This document shows, piece after piece, positions 50,153-56,635 of a stretch of 64,000 nucleotides of DNA. The first letter of the stretch is position 1; each line of letters begins with the position of its first letter. Made by a program: the position numbers and the translations under genes. The stretch is from positions 62,001 through 126,000 of the forward strand of contig NZ_JAALJI010000003.1 in assembly GCF_011064595.1 (NCBI RefSeq), read 5' to 3'. Under the pieces are notes generated by a model, which saw only the letters and a program-made list of their open reading frames with translations, was not told the DNA's origin and ran no database searches. The stretch comes from Paludisphaera soli. Its GTDB lineage: Bacteria; Planctomycetota; Planctomycetia; Isosphaerales; Isosphaeraceae.

Positions 50153-51043
50153 TCACTCCGAGGGCGGGGCGGCGCGGCGGTCGAGCGAGCCGACGACCAG
50201 TCGCGACCCAGGATTCTCGTCCCGCCATTCGCTCCAAGAGACCGACTTGCCTCGCTCCACGAGGGCCAGCTTCTTCCCCTTGTGCGGACCGCTGAACGCG
50301 ACCAGGGCGCCTTCGCCGTCGGCCCAAAGGCTCTCCGTCCCCCGGTCGTAAAGGACGTGCTTGCCCCCCATGCTGAAACCGGTCGAGCCCAGGGTGATCC
50401 TGCGGCCGTCGAGCCGGGGGTCGTAGACCGCGACGGCTTCGAGGGCGGGGGCGAACGGATCGAGATGAACGAGCCGGGGGGTCCCCTCCACGAGGTCGTT
50501 GACGACGAGGACCTTGGCGAGGACCATCCTCGGATACGCGCAGGCGGTCTTCCCGACCGAGAGGCCGATCATGTCGGCCGCGGCGGGGATCCGCTCCCAG
50601 ATCTCGCCTCCGCCGGTCTCGACGGCCGGATAGTCGATCGCCCGGGCCACGTCGCGCCCGATCGGGTCGCCCAGGCTCGCCGGGTCGCATTCGTCGCACC
50701 CGACCGAGAACCAGCAATGGCCGCGCTGGGCGTCCCAACCCGACCAGATCCGGACCTGATCGCCGTCGATGTAGCGGGCCGGGACGGGCTTCGCGGCCTG
50801 AGAGACCGCGGGGAAGATGTTGGGATAGCCGATGACCGCCGAGGCCGCGGCGGCTTGCTCCTCGACCTGGAGGCTCTTCCACTCCTCGAGGACGTAGCTC
50901 CCCCCGAGGCCGAGCGGCACGAGGGTGCAGCCGAGGAGCGCGCCTCGGGCCGTCGCGCGAATGCGCGAGGTGATGCGGGGGGTCGGACTGACGGGGTCGA
51001 CGTTCGAGGAGTCGAGATGGAGAGCGGTGTCGCGCGGGTACAT
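50153..51043 (-). CDS. DUF3179-like membrane-anchored protein lacking the CPLC motif
   Basis: 296 aa. The ATG at 51043 has GGAGGG ten bases upstream. One transmembrane segment (about 33-52, ARGALLGCTLVPLGLGGSYVL region) precedes a periplasmic domain. The DUF3179 pattern is clear: TACAYPRMVLAKVLVVNDLV, then STGFSMGGKHVLYDRGTESLWAD, then a closing SWSEWRDENPGS. Classical members carry a cysteine motif (CPLC) after the strand following VND; here that place reads HLDPFAPA, so the redox-type cysteines are missing there. Cysteine pairs earlier in the domain (GHCWFSVGCDEC) might substitute. Function unknown. Confidence 0.72.
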   Translation of the reverse strand: MYPRDTALHLDSSNVDPVSPTPRITSRIRATARGALLGCTLVPLGLGGSYVLEEWKSLQVEEQAAAASAVIGYPNIFPAVSQAAKPVPARYIDGDQVRIWSGWDAQRGHCWFSVGCDECDPASLGDPIGRDVARAIDYPAVETGGGEIWERIPAAADMIGLSVGKTACAYPRMVLAKVLVVNDLVEGTPRLVHLDPFAPALEAVAVYDPRLDGRRITLGSTGFSMGGKHVLYDRGTESLWADGEGALVAFSGPHKGKKLALVERGKSVSWSEWRDENPGSRLVVGSLDRRAAPPSE

Positions 51044-51199
51044 GGCCGTGAATCCCTCCGAAGCCGTCCTGGACGAACGCGGGGACACGTGAAGAAGGGT
51101 GTCGCGTCGTTATGACAGAGCCCGACCTCGGCGTCAACCGGCCGGGTCGGCCGGGTGGAGGATTGTGCATCCGCGTCACGAAAGCCTTCGGCGCGCGAA

Positions 51200-51265: not shown

Positions 51266-53344
51266 TCAAGCCTTGGCCTCGGCCTGGACGCGCTTGACGA
51301 TCTCTTCCTGGAACCGCAGCGGGAGCTTCTGGTATTTGAGGAACTCCATGCTGAAGCCTCCCTTGCCCTGGGTCATGCTCCGCAGGTCGTTCGAGTAGCC
51401 GAACATTTCGCTGAGCGGGACCTCGGCGGAAATGACCGTGTATCCCGAACGGCTCTCGGTGCCGAGGATGACGCCCCGCTTGGACGAGACGGCTCCCGTG
51501 ACGGGCCCCTGGAACTCGGTCGGGACCTCGACCTCGACGAGCATGATCGGCTCCAGCAAGACCGGCTCGGCCTTGCGGAAGGTCTCTCGGAAGCAGTCGC
51601 GGGCGCAGATTTCGAAGGCCATGGTCGACGAGTCGACGTCGTGGTACGAGCCGTCCTCGAGGACCATCTGGACGCCCATGACCTCGTAGCCGGCCACGGG
51701 CCCCTTGTGCATCGACTCGCGGAAGCCCTTCTCGACCGAGGGGATATACTCGGTCGGGATGCGGCCGCCGGTCACCTTGTTTTCGAAGACGAACGGCTCG
51801 CTGGCGGAGGGCTCCGTGGGGACGAGCTTGCCGACGACGTGGGCGTACTGGCCCGAGCCGCCGGTCTGCTTCTTGTGCTTGTAGTTGAACGGGGTCTCGC
51901 GGGTCGGGGCCTCGCGATAGCTCACCTTCGGCATGCCGACGGTGCAGTCGACCTTGTACTCGCGGCGGATCCGCTCGACGTAGATTTCCAGGTGAAGTTC
52001 GCCCATCCCCGAGATGATGGTCTCGCTCGTCTCCTGGTCGACGTGGACGCGGAACGTGGGGTCCTCGCGCATGAACCGGTTGAGGGCCTTCGAGAGCTTG
52101 TCGTAGTCCGCCCGCTTGTTGGGCTGGATCGACAGGTCGATGACCGGCTCGGCGGCGAAGATGCTCTCCAGAGAGTAGTTCGTCCCTTCGGAGCAGTACG
52201 TGTCGCCGGTGGCGCACTCGATGCCCATGACCGCGACGATGTCGCCGGCCTTCGCGGCGTCGATGTCTTCCTTCTGGTCGGCGTGGACGCGCAGGATGCG
52301 GCTGACGCGAGCCCGCTTCTTCTGGCGGGAGTTGTAGTAGAACGTCCCCTTCTGGAGCGTCCCCTGATACACCCGCATGTAGGTGACCTGGCCGAAGGAC
52401 TCCTCGACCAGCTTGAAGGCCATGGCGACGAGCGGGGCGTCGGGGTCGGTCGAGAGCGGCACCTCGGCCATGCCGTTGTTGTTGTCCTTCGCGAAGACCT
52501 CGCGGTCCAGCGGGCTCGGCAGGTAGCGGCAGACGGCGTCCAGCAGGGGCTGGATGCCCTTGTTGCGATACGCCGTGCCGACCATGACCGGGCAGAGCTG
52601 CGAGGCGATCGTCCCCTCGCGGATCGTCTTGTGGATGAGGTCGAGCGGGACCTCCTGCTCCTCCAGCAGCAGCGCCATGACCTCATCCGAGACCATCGAG
52701 AGCGCCTCGAGCATGCCCTGGCGGGCGCGGGCGGCCTCGTCGGCGAACTCGGCCGGGATCTCGCCGTAGCGGACGTCCTCGCCCTTCTCGCCGTCGAAGT
52801 AGATGGCCCGGCGCTCGATCAGGTCGATCATGCCCTGGAAGTTGGACTCGGCGCCCATCGGGATCTGGAGCGGCAGGGTGGTCAGGCCGAGCTTGGATTC
52901 GAGCTGGCTGATGACGTTCGCCGGGTTGGCGCCGGTGCGGTCCATCTTGTTGATGAACGCGATCCGGGGCACGTTGTACCGCTTCATCTGGCGGTCGACG
53001 GTGATCGACTGGGACTGCACGCCGGCGACGGCGCAGAGCACCAAAACGGCGCCGTCCAGGACGCGGAGCGAGCGCTCGACCTCGACGGTGAAGTCGACGT
53101 GGCCGGGGGTGTCGATGATGTTGATCTCGCTCTCGCCCCAGCGGACGGTCGTCGCCGCCGAGGTGATCGTGATCCCCCGCTCTTTCTCCAGTTCCATGTG
53201 GTCCATCACCGCGCCTTCACCCTTGACCTCCTTGATCACGTGGGTGCGGCCGGTGTAGTACAGCATCCGCTCGGTCAGTGTGGTCTTGCCCGAATCGATG
53301 TGGGCCGAGATACCGATGTTTCGAAGGTTTCGCAGGTTTTCCAT
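51266..53344 (-). CDS. fusA: Elongation factor G (spd/mitochondrial-type subfamily)
   Basis: 692 aa translational GTPase moving tRNA-mRNA through the ribosome. G1 is AHIDSGKTT (14-22), where the common bacterial form has AHIDAGKTT; G2 lies in ERGITITSAAT, G3 is DTPGHVDF and G4 NKMD. The five EF-G domains follow with normal length, ending in a basic QEEIVKRVQAEAKA tail. AHIDSGKTTLTERMLYYTGR is typical of the EF-G1 group shared by spirochaetes, planctomycetes and mitochondria. The ATG at 53344 is chosen because the family N-terminus MENLRNLRNIGIS starts there. It stands alone, not in a str operon. Confidence 0.95.
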   Translation of the reverse strand: MENLRNLRNIGISAHIDSGKTTLTERMLYYTGRTHVIKEVKGEGAVMDHMELEKERGITITSAATTVRWGESEINIIDTPGHVDFTVEVERSLRVLDGAVLVLCAVAGVQSQSITVDRQMKRYNVPRIAFINKMDRTGANPANVISQLESKLGLTTLPLQIPMGAESNFQGMIDLIERRAIYFDGEKGEDVRYGEIPAEFADEAARARQGMLEALSMVSDEVMALLLEEQEVPLDLIHKTIREGTIASQLCPVMVGTAYRNKGIQPLLDAVCRYLPSPLDREVFAKDNNNGMAEVPLSTDPDAPLVAMAFKLVEESFGQVTYMRVYQGTLQKGTFYYNSRQKKRARVSRILRVHADQKEDIDAAKAGDIVAVMGIECATGDTYCSEGTNYSLESIFAAEPVIDLSIQPNKRADYDKLSKALNRFMREDPTFRVHVDQETSETIISGMGELHLEIYVERIRREYKVDCTVGMPKVSYREAPTRETPFNYKHKKQTGGSGQYAHVVGKLVPTEPSASEPFVFENKVTGGRIPTEYIPSVEKGFRESMHKGPVAGYEVMGVQMVLEDGSYHDVDSSTMAFEICARDCFRETFRKAEPVLLEPIMLVEVEVPTEFQGPVTGAVSSKRGVILGTESRSGYTVISAEVPLSEMFGYSNDLRSMTQGKGGFSMEFLKYQKLPLRFQEEIVKRVQAEAKA

Positions 53345-53887
53345 GGTCCAATCACATCTCAACCGGCGCCGAAAGGGTGGAACGCCCTTCCCGCGGCCAG
53401 AAACCACACGCCGAACTCATCGAGACGGGAGCCGTGGGGTCCGCCGTTCCAAGAACGGACCGTCGGCCATCCGAGGGAAGCGGGGCGCATCGAGCACGGA
53501 AGGCCGGAAGGCTCGGTGCGGGATCGGATCGATCCTGAAGGCTCGCGAAGATCAAGGACGAATCATCTTAACAACCGTCGCGGGGCCGTCAAGGCACGTC
53601 CGCTCGTCGCAACTATTCTACGCATATTGGCTAGCGAACCGCCAAATCGTTCTCGCAAAGTCGCCCCCGAGGCTCGCGGTTTCGCGGCTCGACCACCAGC
53701 CTTGGCTGGTATTTTCCGTGAGTGATCCTACAATTCACAGGAGAGATTTCGTCCTCCTCGTGTACACTTTGAGTGCGACGCGTCCCGGAAGCGGTCGTCC
53801 ATGACGCCTTCCGGGCCGGCGGACTTCCATCGAAGAGGCCGATAAGCCCCCCTTCGCCCCCCCGTGCGCAGTCCCCAGGCTATCTGT
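53345..53887. other. 543-bp divergent intergenic region (fusA leader)
   Basis: This lies between fusA (minus) and the signal-peptidase-like gene (plus). On the minus strand TAGAAT (53615-53620) with TTGGCG (53640-53645) could be a fusA promoter, but the 19-bp spacing is long. This area is more AT-rich than its flanks. No gene or strong hairpin is visible. Confidence 0.35.
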
Positions 53888-54667
53888 ATGACGTCCATCC
53901 CAGCGGACCCGCCGACAACCCCACGACGAGTCGTCGCGGCGTCGCCGTTCTCCACGAACGTGCCGCAGCTGACCTTCCTCGTCCCGGGATATCCCCAGTG
54001 GACGTCCGGCCGTCGGGCTCGGGGTGCGGCGTTGGCGGGGATGTATGCGGTCTCGGCGGCGACTTCGCTGCTGCTCTGGGGGAGTCCGGCGACCTGGTTC
54101 TTCCTGGTCGCCTCGATCGCGTTCCAGGGCCTGAGTTGGGTGGACGCGGCCCGGCAGAATCCGTTCTCCGGGCTGACGCCGACTCCGGTACTCGCCGTGA
54201 CGGGCGCCGGACTCGGGCTGGCCCTCCATGCGCCGGCGTTCGCCCTGCTTACGCTCCTGGCCTGGCCGAGTCACGGCCCCGATCCGGGGGACGGCTCCTA
54301 CCTCGTCAATCGGCTCGCGTACAAGGATCGCCTCCCCTCGCCCGGCCAGTGGGTCTGGCTCGACGGCTCGGCGACGGGGCTGCAGAGCGCGGCCCGGGTC
54401 GTCGCGGTCGGCGGCCAGGAGGTGGAATGGACGGGAAAGCGATGGACCGTCAACGGTGAGGAGATCGACGTGAAGTCGGGGCAGGCGTTCGCCGGGTATC
54501 CGAGGCGCTGGAAGTTCCGAGTTCCAGGCAATCACGTCCTCCTCGACCCCGAGACCCGCCCGCGCCCGGGCGAGTCCCGGGCCCCCCTGATGGTCGTCGA
54601 GAGCGAGCACATCACCGGCCGGGTCTGGGCCCGCTGCTCCCCGTTCTGGGGACGCAGCTTGCTGTGA
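53888..54667 (+). CDS. Signal-peptidase-I-like (S26) membrane protein without the catalytic lysine
   Basis: 259 aa. Two hydrophobic stretches (about 45-82 and 98-126) precede a domain that follows S26 signal peptidases. GDGSYLVNRLAY (134-145) matches the strand after the Ser box, SPGQWVW the next strand, RVVAVGGQEVEW (170-181) the Lys-containing strand, RWTVNGEEID the loop, and HITGRVWARCSPFWG the end. The Ser box reads SHGP (S128), with Met lost and two residues deleted before GD. The residue just before R170, where the catalytic Lys should stand, is Ala169. The protein is therefore probably not a working peptidase. It lies upstream of the HIT gene. A GTG at 53864 is an alternative start. 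Confidence 0.7.
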   Translation: MTSIPADPPTTPRRVVAASPFSTNVPQLTFLVPGYPQWTSGRRARGAALAGMYAVSAATSLLLWGSPATWFFLVASIAFQGLSWVDAARQNPFSGLTPTPVLAVTGAGLGLALHAPAFALLTLLAWPSHGPDPGDGSYLVNRLAYKDRLPSPGQWVWLDGSATGLQSAARVVAVGGQEVEWTGKRWTVNGEEIDVKSGQAFAGYPRRWKFRVPGNHVLLDPETRPRPGESRAPLMVVESEHITGRVWARCSPFWGRSLL

Positions 54668-54913
54668 GCCGATGGGAAGTCGACCGATCCGGTGCGAGCC
54701 CTCGCCGACCGAACGCCCCGCCCATCCGATCCTTTCCCTTGTTTTGATCAGGTCTTGGAGAGACATCTCCGACCCCCGCCTGTTATGATCCATTAGGAGT
54801 CGGCGTGGGCCCGGCTTCTCGGGCGTGACGGACCGTCGTGCGAAACATCCGCTCGCTCTCGATGCCGGCCTCATCCGGGCACCGGGCTTTCCGGAGCCTC
54901 GAGGACCTCGACC

Positions 54914-55441
54914 GTGATCGATCGAATCTGGGCGCCCTGGCGTGCGCAGTATGTTTCCGGCACGGACCCGGAGTCCCGGCCGGCCTCCTCGTGCTTCCTC
55001 TGTCAGGGCCTGGCCGAGGATCGCGATGGCGAGAATCTCATCGCCTGGCGCGGCGAAGAGACGGTGGTGATCCTCAATCGATATCCGTACAACAACGGCC
55101 ACCTGCTCGTCGCCCCGATCGTCCACAAGGGCAGCCTTCAGGACCTCGAGGGCCGATCGCTCGTCGAGCCCGTCCAGACGATTCGCTGGATGCTTCGGAT
55201 CCTCGACCGGATGATGCGGCCTCAGGGATACAACGTGGGGCTCAACCAGGGCAAGGCCGCGGGCGCGGGATTGCCGGGGCACCTCCACTGGCACATCGTC
55301 CCGCGCTGGGACGGAGACGTGAATTTCATGCCGGTGCTCGGCGAGACGAAGGTCGTCACCGAAAGCCTCCGCTCGTTCCAGGAGCGCCTGCGACGCGAGA
55401 TCGAGGCCGACCTCAAGGCCGGCGCGACTTTGACCGAATGA
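54914..55441 (+). CDS. HIT family nucleotide hydrolase/phosphorylase
   Basis: 175 aa from a GTG at 54914. The histidine triad is HLHWHIVPRW (H123, H125, H127). N-terminal MIDRIWAPWRAQYV and the zinc-type CFLC (C27, C30) match the Ap4A-phosphorylase-like branch found in actinobacteria and planctomycetes. Strands NRYPYNNGHLLVAPIVH complete the fold. It probably cleaves dinucleoside polyphosphates or nucleotidyl conjugates in the cytoplasm. The PIN/TRAM gene follows after about 90 bp. Confidence 0.92.
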   Translation: MIDRIWAPWRAQYVSGTDPESRPASSCFLCQGLAEDRDGENLIAWRGEETVVILNRYPYNNGHLLVAPIVHKGSLQDLEGRSLVEPVQTIRWMLRILDRMMRPQGYNVGLNQGKAAGAGLPGHLHWHIVPRWDGDVNFMPVLGETKVVTESLRSFQERLRREIEADLKAGATLTE

Positions 55442-55531
55442 TTTCATCTAGCTTTTTATTTCATTGCGCCCCATCTTGGATCAATGGCCGGACCATCCCG
55501 GCGGTTCGAGCGTAGCGAGGTCCACCATCCC

Positions 55532-56635
55532 ATGTTGCTCGTCCTGATTCGACTGACGTTCATCCTCGTGGTCGCCGGGCTCGGCGTCCGCGTCGCTCGG
55601 GTCGTCGGCGAGAACGAGATCGGCAAGCCGTACGTTTTCTTCATCGGCCTGATGCTGGCCGCCATCGCGTTCGTGATGGGCGACCTGCTGACGCCGCGGA
55701 AGAAGATCCAGACGATCTCGGCGATCTATTTCGGGGTGATCGTCGGCATCTTCCTCAGCAACCTGATCACCGACGCCGTCGAGCCCGCGTTGCAGCTCTA
55801 CATCAACCCCAAGATCCACTCGGCGATCGCCAGCGTGCTGATGATATTCGTCACGTACATCTGCATCTCGACCCTGTTGCAGACCAAGGACGATTTCCGG
55901 TTCGTGATCCCCTACGTCGAGTTTTCCAAGGAAGTCAAAGGGGCCAGGCCCCTGGTCCTCGACACCTCCGTCGTGATCGACGGGCGGATCGCCGACGTGG
56001 CCGAGACCAAGGTGATCGACCAGCCGATGGTGGTCCCGCGGTTCGTCCTCCAGGAACTCCAGGGCATCGCCGACAGCTCGGACAAGCTCCGGCGCAATCG
56101 CGGCCGTCGCGGGCTGGACATCCTGAATCGGCTCCAGAAGTCGCCGGGCGTCGAGGTACGGATCGACGACGCCGAGATCCCCGAGCTGGCCGGCGTCCGC
56201 GAGGTCGACCAGCGGCTGGTGATCCTGGCGAAGCATCTGGGGGGGAAGGTCGTGACGAACGACTACAACCTCAACAAGATCGCAAGGCTCCAGGGGGTCG
56301 ACGTGATCAACCTGAACGACCTCGCCAACGCGATGAAGCCGATCGTCCTTCCCGGCGAAAACCTGAACGTCAAGCTGATCAAGCGGGGCGAGGAGGCCGG
56401 CCAGGGCGTCGGCTATCTCGACGACGGCACGATGGTCGTCGCCGAGCAGGGGGCTCACCACCTCGGCGAGATCGTGCGACTGATCGTAACCAGCGTGCTC
56501 CAGACGAGTGCCGGGCGGATGATCTTCGGCCGCATGGAGCTGCTCCCGCCTCCGAAGGGGAATGCGGTCGCAAGCGGGCCCTCGCATCACGAGAACCCGC
56601 CTCCGACCTCGCACGGGCGAAACCGCGACGCTTGA
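55532..56635 (+). CDS. PIN/TRAM domain membrane protein (YacL-like)
   Basis: 367 aa. Four transmembrane helices (about 3-22, 33-52, 60-80, 98-118) precede a PIN nuclease domain (about 138-270) with acidic residues D144 and D150 in LVLDTSVVIDGR, a later E in VLQELQGIAD and VVTNDYNLNKIA. A TRAM RNA-binding domain (about 285-345, ending ...TSAGRMIFGR) follows. This is the YacL/TRAM family of membrane-attached putative ribonucleases. The ATG at 55532 begins the first helix; an ATG at 55484 would add 16 polar residues. Confidence 0.9.
   Translation: MLLVLIRLTFILVVAGLGVRVARVVGENEIGKPYVFFIGLMLAAIAFVMGDLLTPRKKIQTISAIYFGVIVGIFLSNLITDAVEPALQLYINPKIHSAIASVLMIFVTYICISTLLQTKDDFRFVIPYVEFSKEVKGARPLVLDTSVVIDGRIADVAETKVIDQPMVVPRFVLQELQGIADSSDKLRRNRGRRGLDILNRLQKSPGVEVRIDDAEIPELAGVREVDQRLVILAKHLGGKVVTNDYNLNKIARLQGVDVINLNDLANAMKPIVLPGENLNVKLIKRGEEAGQGVGYLDDGTMVVAEQGAHHLGEIVRLIVTSVLQTSAGRMIFGRMELLPPPKGNAVASGPSHHENPPPTSHGRNRDA

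What the first reader, a model, noticed from the sequence alone, without database searches (positions are those of the whole stretch)
53888..54667. Signal-peptidase-like membrane protein that has lost its catalytic lysine
Seen: all strands of the S26 fold are recognisable, the Ser box is reduced to SHGP, and the lysine position is Ala169. Known: S26 peptidases use a Ser/Lys dyad. Inference: a non-catalytic derivative, perhaps binding signal peptides or envelope proteins.
Basis: partly seen in the sequence, partly recalled or inferred. Interest (0 to 1): 0.5.

Follow-up and report, generated by a model that had tools for sequence, protein, structure and literature searches.

The report
Dead signal peptidase kept by planctomycetes
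This gene makes a membrane protein built like the enzyme that cuts signal peptides off exported proteins, but it has lost the cutting residues, and it belongs to a family of such 'dead' proteins in planctomycete bacteria, which suggests that the fold was kept for holding something rather than cutting it.

Summary
ORF 53888-54667 (+) encodes a 259-aa protein with three predicted membrane helices and a signal-peptidase (S26) fold (SipA Z 10.3, LepB Z 9.5). The lysine position is Ala169, never Lys in 28 aligned orthologues; residue 128 is Ser in only 4 of 28; three of 28 have no lysine in the S26 half. Three S26 paralogues with intact motifs lie elsewhere in the genome. The gene is not decaying: it is in 36 of 45 family genomes, two as fragments; dN/dS is 0.16-0.47 in 15 genus pairs; fusA, HIT and PIN genes lie nearby in 20 of 20 regions. 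New: it nests within a wider dyadless family ('Z': zinc ribbon, same membrane domain, dead S26) scattered through Planctomycetota, whose genes lie with DUF1257, TPR and PilT-like ATPase genes (19 of 20 regions each). Best reading: a periplasm-facing pseudo-signal-peptidase acting by binding, as proposed for SipA. Non-catalytic is strongly supported; the ligand is unknown. Dyadless S26 proteins are known (SipA, SpsA); this is a new variant.

The parts
53888..54667 (+). Gene of the pseudo-signal-peptidase ('F' protein, 259 aa)
   Evidence: orthologues
53969..54259 (+). Membrane domain, residues 28-124: PG..Q motif and three predicted helices (43-62, 68-89, 99-124), shared with the Z family
   Evidence: AF2 model; conservation; charge pattern fits N-in with the S26 domain outside (inference)
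54263..54664 (+). S26 (signal peptidase) fold, residues 126-259
54269..54298 (+). Eroded Ser loop, residues 128-137 (SHGPDPGDGS); no conserved serine
54392..54394 (+). Codon of Ala169, at the position of the general-base lysine
51266..53407 (-). Neighbour: elongation factor G (fusA), divergently transcribed; homologue within 8 kb in 20 of 20 regions
   Evidence: Pfam
54914..55441 (+). Neighbour: HIT-domain protein; homologue within 8 kb in 20 of 20 regions
   Evidence: Pfam
55484..56635 (+). Neighbour: PIN-domain protein; homologue within 8 kb in 20 of 20 regions
   Evidence: Pfam
54760..54789 (+). Promoter-like site between the gene and the HIT gene (the HIT gene may have its own promoter)
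   Evidence: consensus scan only

Best explanation
A catalytically dead type I signal peptidase fold, anchored by three membrane helices with the S26 domain facing the periplasm, kept as a non-catalytic binding or assembly factor for an exported or envelope protein; it works as SipA is proposed to work, not like LepB. Shown here by sequence or model: S26 homology; no Ser/Lys dyad in any of 28 aligned orthologues or 20 aligned Z relatives; S26 paralogues with intact motifs in the genome; purifying selection within the genus; a conserved locus. Inferred: membrane topology, that the remaining groove or the new aromatic surface binds a polypeptide, and which one.
For: Fold: AF2 pLDDT 81.7, pTM 0.69; Foldseek SpsB E 5e-5; VIA-align SipA 4n31 Z 10.3 (126 aligned, rmsd 4.7) and LepB 3s04 Z 9.5 (128 aligned, rmsd 3.3), which count as tied. 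Dyad: Lys column A17/G9/V2, Ser column a gap in 26 of 28; no lysine in the S26 half of 3 of 28. S26 genes elsewhere: three, with SMAPT, YIKR/YVKR and GDN boxes. Selection: dN/dS 0.16-0.47 in 15 pairs; 36 of 45 family genomes (sorted by hand); fusA, HIT and PIN genes within 8 kb in 20 of 20 regions. F is one clade (100/100), and F+Z is split from 12 other S26 proteins at 100/98 with the dyad columns removed. Precedent: SipA has Asp and Gly in place of Ser and Lys, no detected peptidase activity, a kept peptide-binding cleft, and is needed for pilus polymerisation (PMC4049620, passages only); S. aureus SpsA is described as inactive (PMC12445088, passages only).
Against: No binding partner, expression or phenotype is known. 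F changed more than SipA: the Ser loop is shortened, Tyr stands at 138 in 26 of 28 where Z and the others have mostly Val or Leu, and extra conserved tryptophans appear, so the signal-peptide groove may no longer exist. In SipA itself a mutation meant to occlude the cleft did not abolish polymerisation. The gene is without a match in 7 of 45 family genomes, only a C-terminal remnant in one (G011), and not found in G060, which is 83% complete, so it is not universally needed. The model has no coordinates that I could measure.
Confidence: 0.6

Rival explanations
1. Regulatory partner: the dead S26 protein pairs with one of the intact LepB-type signal peptidases and tunes its access to substrates or its stability.
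For: Three S26 paralogues with intact motifs are in the same genome, and PF10502 is matched in 44 of 45 family genomes. Pseudoproteases that regulate active proteases exist (iRhoms and ADAM17; abstracts in the listing).
Against: No gene linkage: the window gene is at fusA/HIT/PIN, the paralogues are on other contigs. No co-evolution test was run.
Confidence: 0.15
2. The S26 fold was turned into an aromatic surface that binds membrane lipid or a cell-envelope ligand that is not a protein; the signal-peptide groove plays no part.
For: Median 8 Trp in the S26 half of 28 F proteins, against 3.5 in 20 Z and 3 in 12 other S26 proteins (medians from the lists); W155, W157, W181, W247 and W254 are each conserved in 21-27 of 28.
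Against: The tryptophans could be structural; there is no ligand evidence; where they lie on the surface was not measured. One of the 12 other S26 proteins also has 9 Trp.
Confidence: 0.17
3. An active enzyme using another residue set (for example a different Ser/Lys or an Asp/Lys pair).
For: S128 and lysines 146, 184, 196 and 209 exist in the window protein.
Against: In the S26 half no Ser, Lys, His or Cys is conserved in 18 or more of 28 orthologues, and Asp only at one place, where the window has N189; three of 28 lack any Lys there.
Confidence: 0.04
4. A decaying gene without function.
For: No match in 7 of 45 family genomes, a remnant in one, not found in one more; long branches.
Against: No stop inside any listed match; dN/dS below 0.5 in all 15 pairs; neighbours kept in 20 of 20 regions.
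Confidence: 0.04

Closest known systems
SipA (Streptococcus pyogenes pilus assembly factor; PDB 4n31, 4k8w)
   Same: S26 fold without the Ser/Lys dyad; membrane-anchored, extracytoplasmic; top row of the VIA list (Z 10.3, tied with LepB and SpsB)
   Different: SipA has an N-terminal membrane anchor within 35 residues, a kept peptide-binding cleft and a pilus operon; this protein has three predicted membrane helices, a shortened Ser loop, extra tryptophans and a fusA/HIT/PIN locus
SpsA (Staphylococcus aureus)
   Same: Signal peptidase I paralogue that lacks two catalytic residues beside an active paralogue (PMC12445088, passages)
   Different: Not compared by sequence here; no shared membrane domain or context known to me
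Type I signal peptidase LepB / SpsB
   Same: S26 beta fold, Pfam PF10502, conserved V-P and glycines (P213, G176, G244)
   Different: No Ser/Lys dyad and no GDN box; below the TIGR02227 cut-off
Group Z, found here: zinc ribbon + PG..Q membrane domain + dyadless S26
   Same: Same membrane domain and dead S26 domain; F nests among Z sequences
   Different: Z has an N-terminal zinc ribbon and a Ser loop of ordinary length, with Asp or Asn at the Ser column in 12 of 20 and Asp at the Lys column in 11 of 20, and lies with DUF1257, TPR, PilT-like and AAA+ genes

Membership tests
Peptidase_S26 (PF10502), homology | Profile match over the curated cut-off | tested here: met
   23.3 against 22.9 bits, just over; 22 of 28 orthologues match at E<=0.05
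Peptidase_S26 (PF10502), homology | Signal peptidase beta fold | tested here: met
   AF2 model; Foldseek and VIA hits to SpsB, LepB, SipA
Type I signal peptidase (enzyme) | Catalytic serine in the SM.PT box | tested here: not met
   Box absent; nucleophile column a gap in 26 of 28, R and L in the other two
Type I signal peptidase (enzyme) | Catalytic lysine (K-R-V/I box) | tested here: not met
   A17/G9/V2 of 28
Type I signal peptidase (enzyme) | NCBIfam TIGR02227 equivalog cut-off | tested here: not met
   26.9 against 47 bits
Type I signal peptidase (enzyme) | Cleaves signal peptides | not testable with these tools
   needs an assay
SipA-type pilus assembly factor | Dyadless S26 fold | tested here: met
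SipA-type pilus assembly factor | Located in a sortase-pilus operon | tested here: not met
   Neighbours are fusA, HIT, PIN
SipA-type pilus assembly factor | Peptide-binding cleft retained | tested here: inconclusive
   Strands predicted, but the Ser loop is shortened and Y138 stands where others have mostly V or L; no coordinates to measure
   Z profile gives 70.9 bits to the window protein over positions 86-341; F+Z against 12 others 100/98
   The window protein has one Cys, C250; the Z profile aligns only from position 86

The most novel reading that the evidence does not exclude
Planctomycetota evolved early a pseudo-signal-peptidase that was built into a PilT-linked envelope machine (AAA+ ATPase, DUF1257 protein, zinc-ribbon pseudo-peptidase, TPR protein, PilT-like ATPase). 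The window's lineage freed a copy from that cluster, dropped the zinc ribbon and part of the Ser loop, and made it an independent envelope factor kept by most of its family. A dead signal peptidase would then have been tied to pilus-type machinery a second time, independently of SipA.
Probability: 0.3. Interest if true: 0.75.

Novelty: new variant of a known kind. Interest (0 to 1): 0.52.

Why it matters
Pseudo-signal-peptidases are known to me from a few Gram-positive cases. A dyadless S26 lineage spread through one phylum, with its own membrane domain and a conserved gene cluster holding a PilT-like ATPase, would be a new place to ask what a signal-peptidase fold does when it no longer cuts, in bacteria with an unusual envelope. 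It also warns that PF10502 hits in planctomycetes should not be annotated as signal peptidases without checking the dyad.

Tried and rejected
One search translated minus-strand loci in the wrong orientation; redone. The idea that S128 still marks the nucleophile was dropped after alignment with other S26 proteins. The idea that F belongs to the DUF1257/PilT cluster was tested and dropped: the DUF1257 neighbour was found in 2 of 18 family genomes searched, the two of that set with a Z gene.

Literature: searches for inactive or planctomycete signal peptidases and for DUF1257/Ycf46/Ycf35 listed no paper whose title or abstract start describes this family. Searches found more papers (339, 9,328 and 50) than they listed (20, 12 and 10), and the library holds only open-licence PMC papers, so this is weak evidence of absence.

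A search for named relatives with the alignment failed for lack of a conserved stretch; the single-protein search kept one named relative, a Planctomycetales metagenome assembly. The membrane domain was not identified: weak Pfam hits (YrhK, VMA21) are below cut-off, and it was not folded alone, so I claim nothing about its fold.

Rows dropped: of the 29 matches, L036 (cut at a contig end) was left out, giving 28. The comparison set of 12 other S26 proteins was picked by me from loci and is not random: 9 have both residues at the dyad columns; L068 and L069 lack both and L074 lacks the Lys. Of the S26 frames read, L075 (which also looks dyadless), L079 and L100 were left out; loci L080-L092 were fetched but not read. 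Aligned Z rows: 20 of the frames read; L147 and L186 were left out as near-copies, and L158, L160, L162, L172 and L201 as divergent or incomplete. With residues labelled intact or dead, the 60-row tree needs 3 changes, so dyad loss happened, or was regained, outside F+Z too.

Full report
1. The gene. Window 53888-54667 (+) is an open frame of 259 codons starting at ATG, with codon-position GC of 0.68/0.58/0.87. The window is part of a 7.97-Mb genome, contig C121. That the family is Isosphaeraceae is my recollection of such genomes, not a tool result.

2. Fold. Pfam PF10502 matches residues 138-246 at 23.3 bits (cut-off 22.9); NCBIfam TIGR02227 gives 26.9 bits, below its cut-off of 47. A profile of 28 orthologues finds SpsB in the PDB at 1.1e-8, and the SipA entries 4k8w and 4n31 at 0.034 and 0.062. 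The AF2 model (28-row alignment, pLDDT 81.7, pTM 0.69) has helices 43-62, 68-89 and 99-124, then a beta domain 126-259. Foldseek: SpsB E 5e-5. VIA-align: SipA 4n31 Z 10.3 (126 aligned, rmsd 4.7), LepB 3s04 Z 9.5 (128 aligned, rmsd 3.3), SpsB 9.3; the best row that is not an S26 protein is a subunit of respiratory complex I at 7.8, aligned to the helices. K or R occurs before helix 1 and between helices 2 and 3 in 28 of 28, and between helices 1 and 2 in 4 of 28, which fits an N-in topology with the S26 domain outside (inference).

3. The dyad. Ala169 stands where SpsB has the lysine of YVKR. In 28 orthologues that column is A17, G9, V2. Position 128 is Ser in 4 and Thr in 1 of 28. Aligned with 12 other S26 proteins, the nucleophile column is a gap in 26 of 28 and R and L in the other two, and the stretch between P127 and Y138 holds 10 residues in 22 of 28, against 14 in 8 of 12. 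Three of 28 have no lysine from W126 to the end. In the S26 half no Ser, Lys, His or Cys is conserved in 18 or more of 28; the conserved polar residues are Tyr, Asn, Arg, Glu and one Asp where the window has N189. An alternative Ser/Lys pair common to the family is therefore very unlikely.

4. Intact paralogues. The same genome has three longer S26 genes with SMAPT, YIKR or YVKR, and GDN boxes: two adjacent on contig C1 and one on C111. PF10502 is matched in 44 of 45 family genomes (the dyads of these other matches were not checked).

5. Distribution and selection. With the single protein, 29 of 59 genomes match, its own included: 29 of 37 in the window's family and 0 of 22 in other families of the class. 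With the profile, 38 of 45 family genomes match. Sorting those by hand, 36 carry this gene (two, G012 and G066, as pieces at contig ends; one, G024, strongly diverged), one (G011) has only a C-terminal remnant between fusA and the HIT gene, and one (G060) has only the Z relative; 7 have no match. In G016 the fusA and HIT genes lie together without it. dN/dS by Nei-Gojobori is 0.16-0.47 in all 15 pairs of six genus members; the strong GC3 bias makes dS uncertain.

6. Locus. In 20 of 20 fetched regions (20 of the 36 genomes that carry the gene), homologues of fusA, the HIT gene and the PIN gene lie within 8 kb. The order fusA(-), this gene(+), HIT(+), PIN(+) was read off in four of them (L106, L110, L112, L119). 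Pfam identities. A promoter-like site lies between this gene and the HIT gene, so co-transcription is not shown.

7. The wider family. Some hits (in G021, G060, G028, G042, G046, G344 and G309) have a zinc-ribbon-like N-terminus (MQCPSC.FENMPG..C..C or similar), the same membrane domain, and an S26 domain. I call them Z. With a Z profile, 34 of 392 phylum genomes and 50 of 297 class genomes match at E<=1e-8; these counts also include F genes (2 genomes in the phylum sample, most of the window family in the class sample) and some ordinary S26 proteins. Among 20 aligned Z proteins none has the dyad: the Ser column is D9, N3, A3, gap 2, and I, S, E once each; the Lys column is D11, S3, E2, A2, N1, G1. 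The Z model (19 rows, pLDDT 79.8) aligns to LepB 1t7d at Z 11.1 and SipA at 10.9. In a maximum-likelihood tree of 60 rows without the dyad columns, F is one clade (100/100), F+Z is split from the 12 others at 100/98, and Z is paraphyletic to F. The simplest reading is one early loss of the dyad for F+Z, then loss of the zinc ribbon and of part of the Ser loop in F. The tree is unrooted, so this polarity rests on taking intact S26 as ancestral; the intact/dead label needs 3 changes on the whole tree, as three of the 12 others also lack one or both residues.

8. Z neighbourhood. Of 20 Z regions, 19 have the DUF1257-like gene upstream, 19 a TPR gene and 19 a T2SSE ATPase gene downstream, 17 the AAA+ gene and 15 the radical SAM gene upstream, all on the Z strand. 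L215, L216, L202 and L209 are cut by contig ends; L220 has only the DUF1257-like gene and is a true exception as far as its 14 kb show. Pfam names, for two regions. The one ATPase tested with NCBIfam is over the PilT/PilU cut-off (395.5 against 319.1 bits). In four regions the longest TPR frame overlaps the Z stop by a few bases. The DUF1257 gene was found in 2 of 18 family genomes searched, the two with Z, so F has no link to this cluster where I looked.

9. Mechanism. I commit to a non-catalytic binding or assembly factor. SipA is the precedent: Asp and Gly replace Ser and Lys, no peptidase activity was detected (data not shown there), the cleft is kept, and it is needed for pilus polymerisation; yet dyad-position mutants and a mutant meant to block the cleft still polymerised (PMC4049620, passages only). 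SpsA is called inactive in a review (PMC12445088, passages only). F differs in having more tryptophan (median 8 in the S26 half, against 3.5 in Z and 3 in the others) and Tyr138 where others have mostly Val or Leu. So the surface used for binding may not be the old groove, and I give that rival 0.17.

10. Verdict. The finding is right in its core, and the protein belongs to a larger family that none of my literature listings described (the library is partial). Dyadless S26 proteins as such are known, hence 'new variant of a known kind'.

Noticed in passing
L202-L221 (20 regions), e.g. L204:5001-11633: Conserved gene run radical SAM - AAA+ ATPase - DUF1257 - zinc-ribbon pseudo-signal-peptidase - TPR - PilT-like ATPase, patchily spread in Planctomycetota
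   Followed up: partly
L068, L069, L075 (frames printed): Further S26 proteins with Ala for the serine and Met or Ala for the lysine (L068, L069), or apparently neither residue (L075, by eye); the first two branch nearest to F+Z in the quick tree
   Followed up: partly
L103, L104 (own genome, contigs C1 and C111): The three intact signal peptidases carry a Cys-rich insert (CP.C...C..C) between the Ser box and the Lys box, which looks like a zinc ribbon (by eye)
   Followed up: no
L126 (G011), upstream of the HIT gene: Only a short C-terminal remnant of the gene between fusA and HIT: loss, or an assembly error
   Followed up: no
window 50153-51088 (-): DUF3179 protein beside fusA (Pfam 60.7 bits); a similar frame lies upstream of the HIT gene in G017 (L128), seen by eye only
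   Followed up: no
residues 155, 157, 181, 247, 254 of the window protein: Tryptophans conserved in 21-27 of 28 orthologues; Trp is not among the three commonest letters at these columns in 12 other S26 proteins
   Followed up: partly
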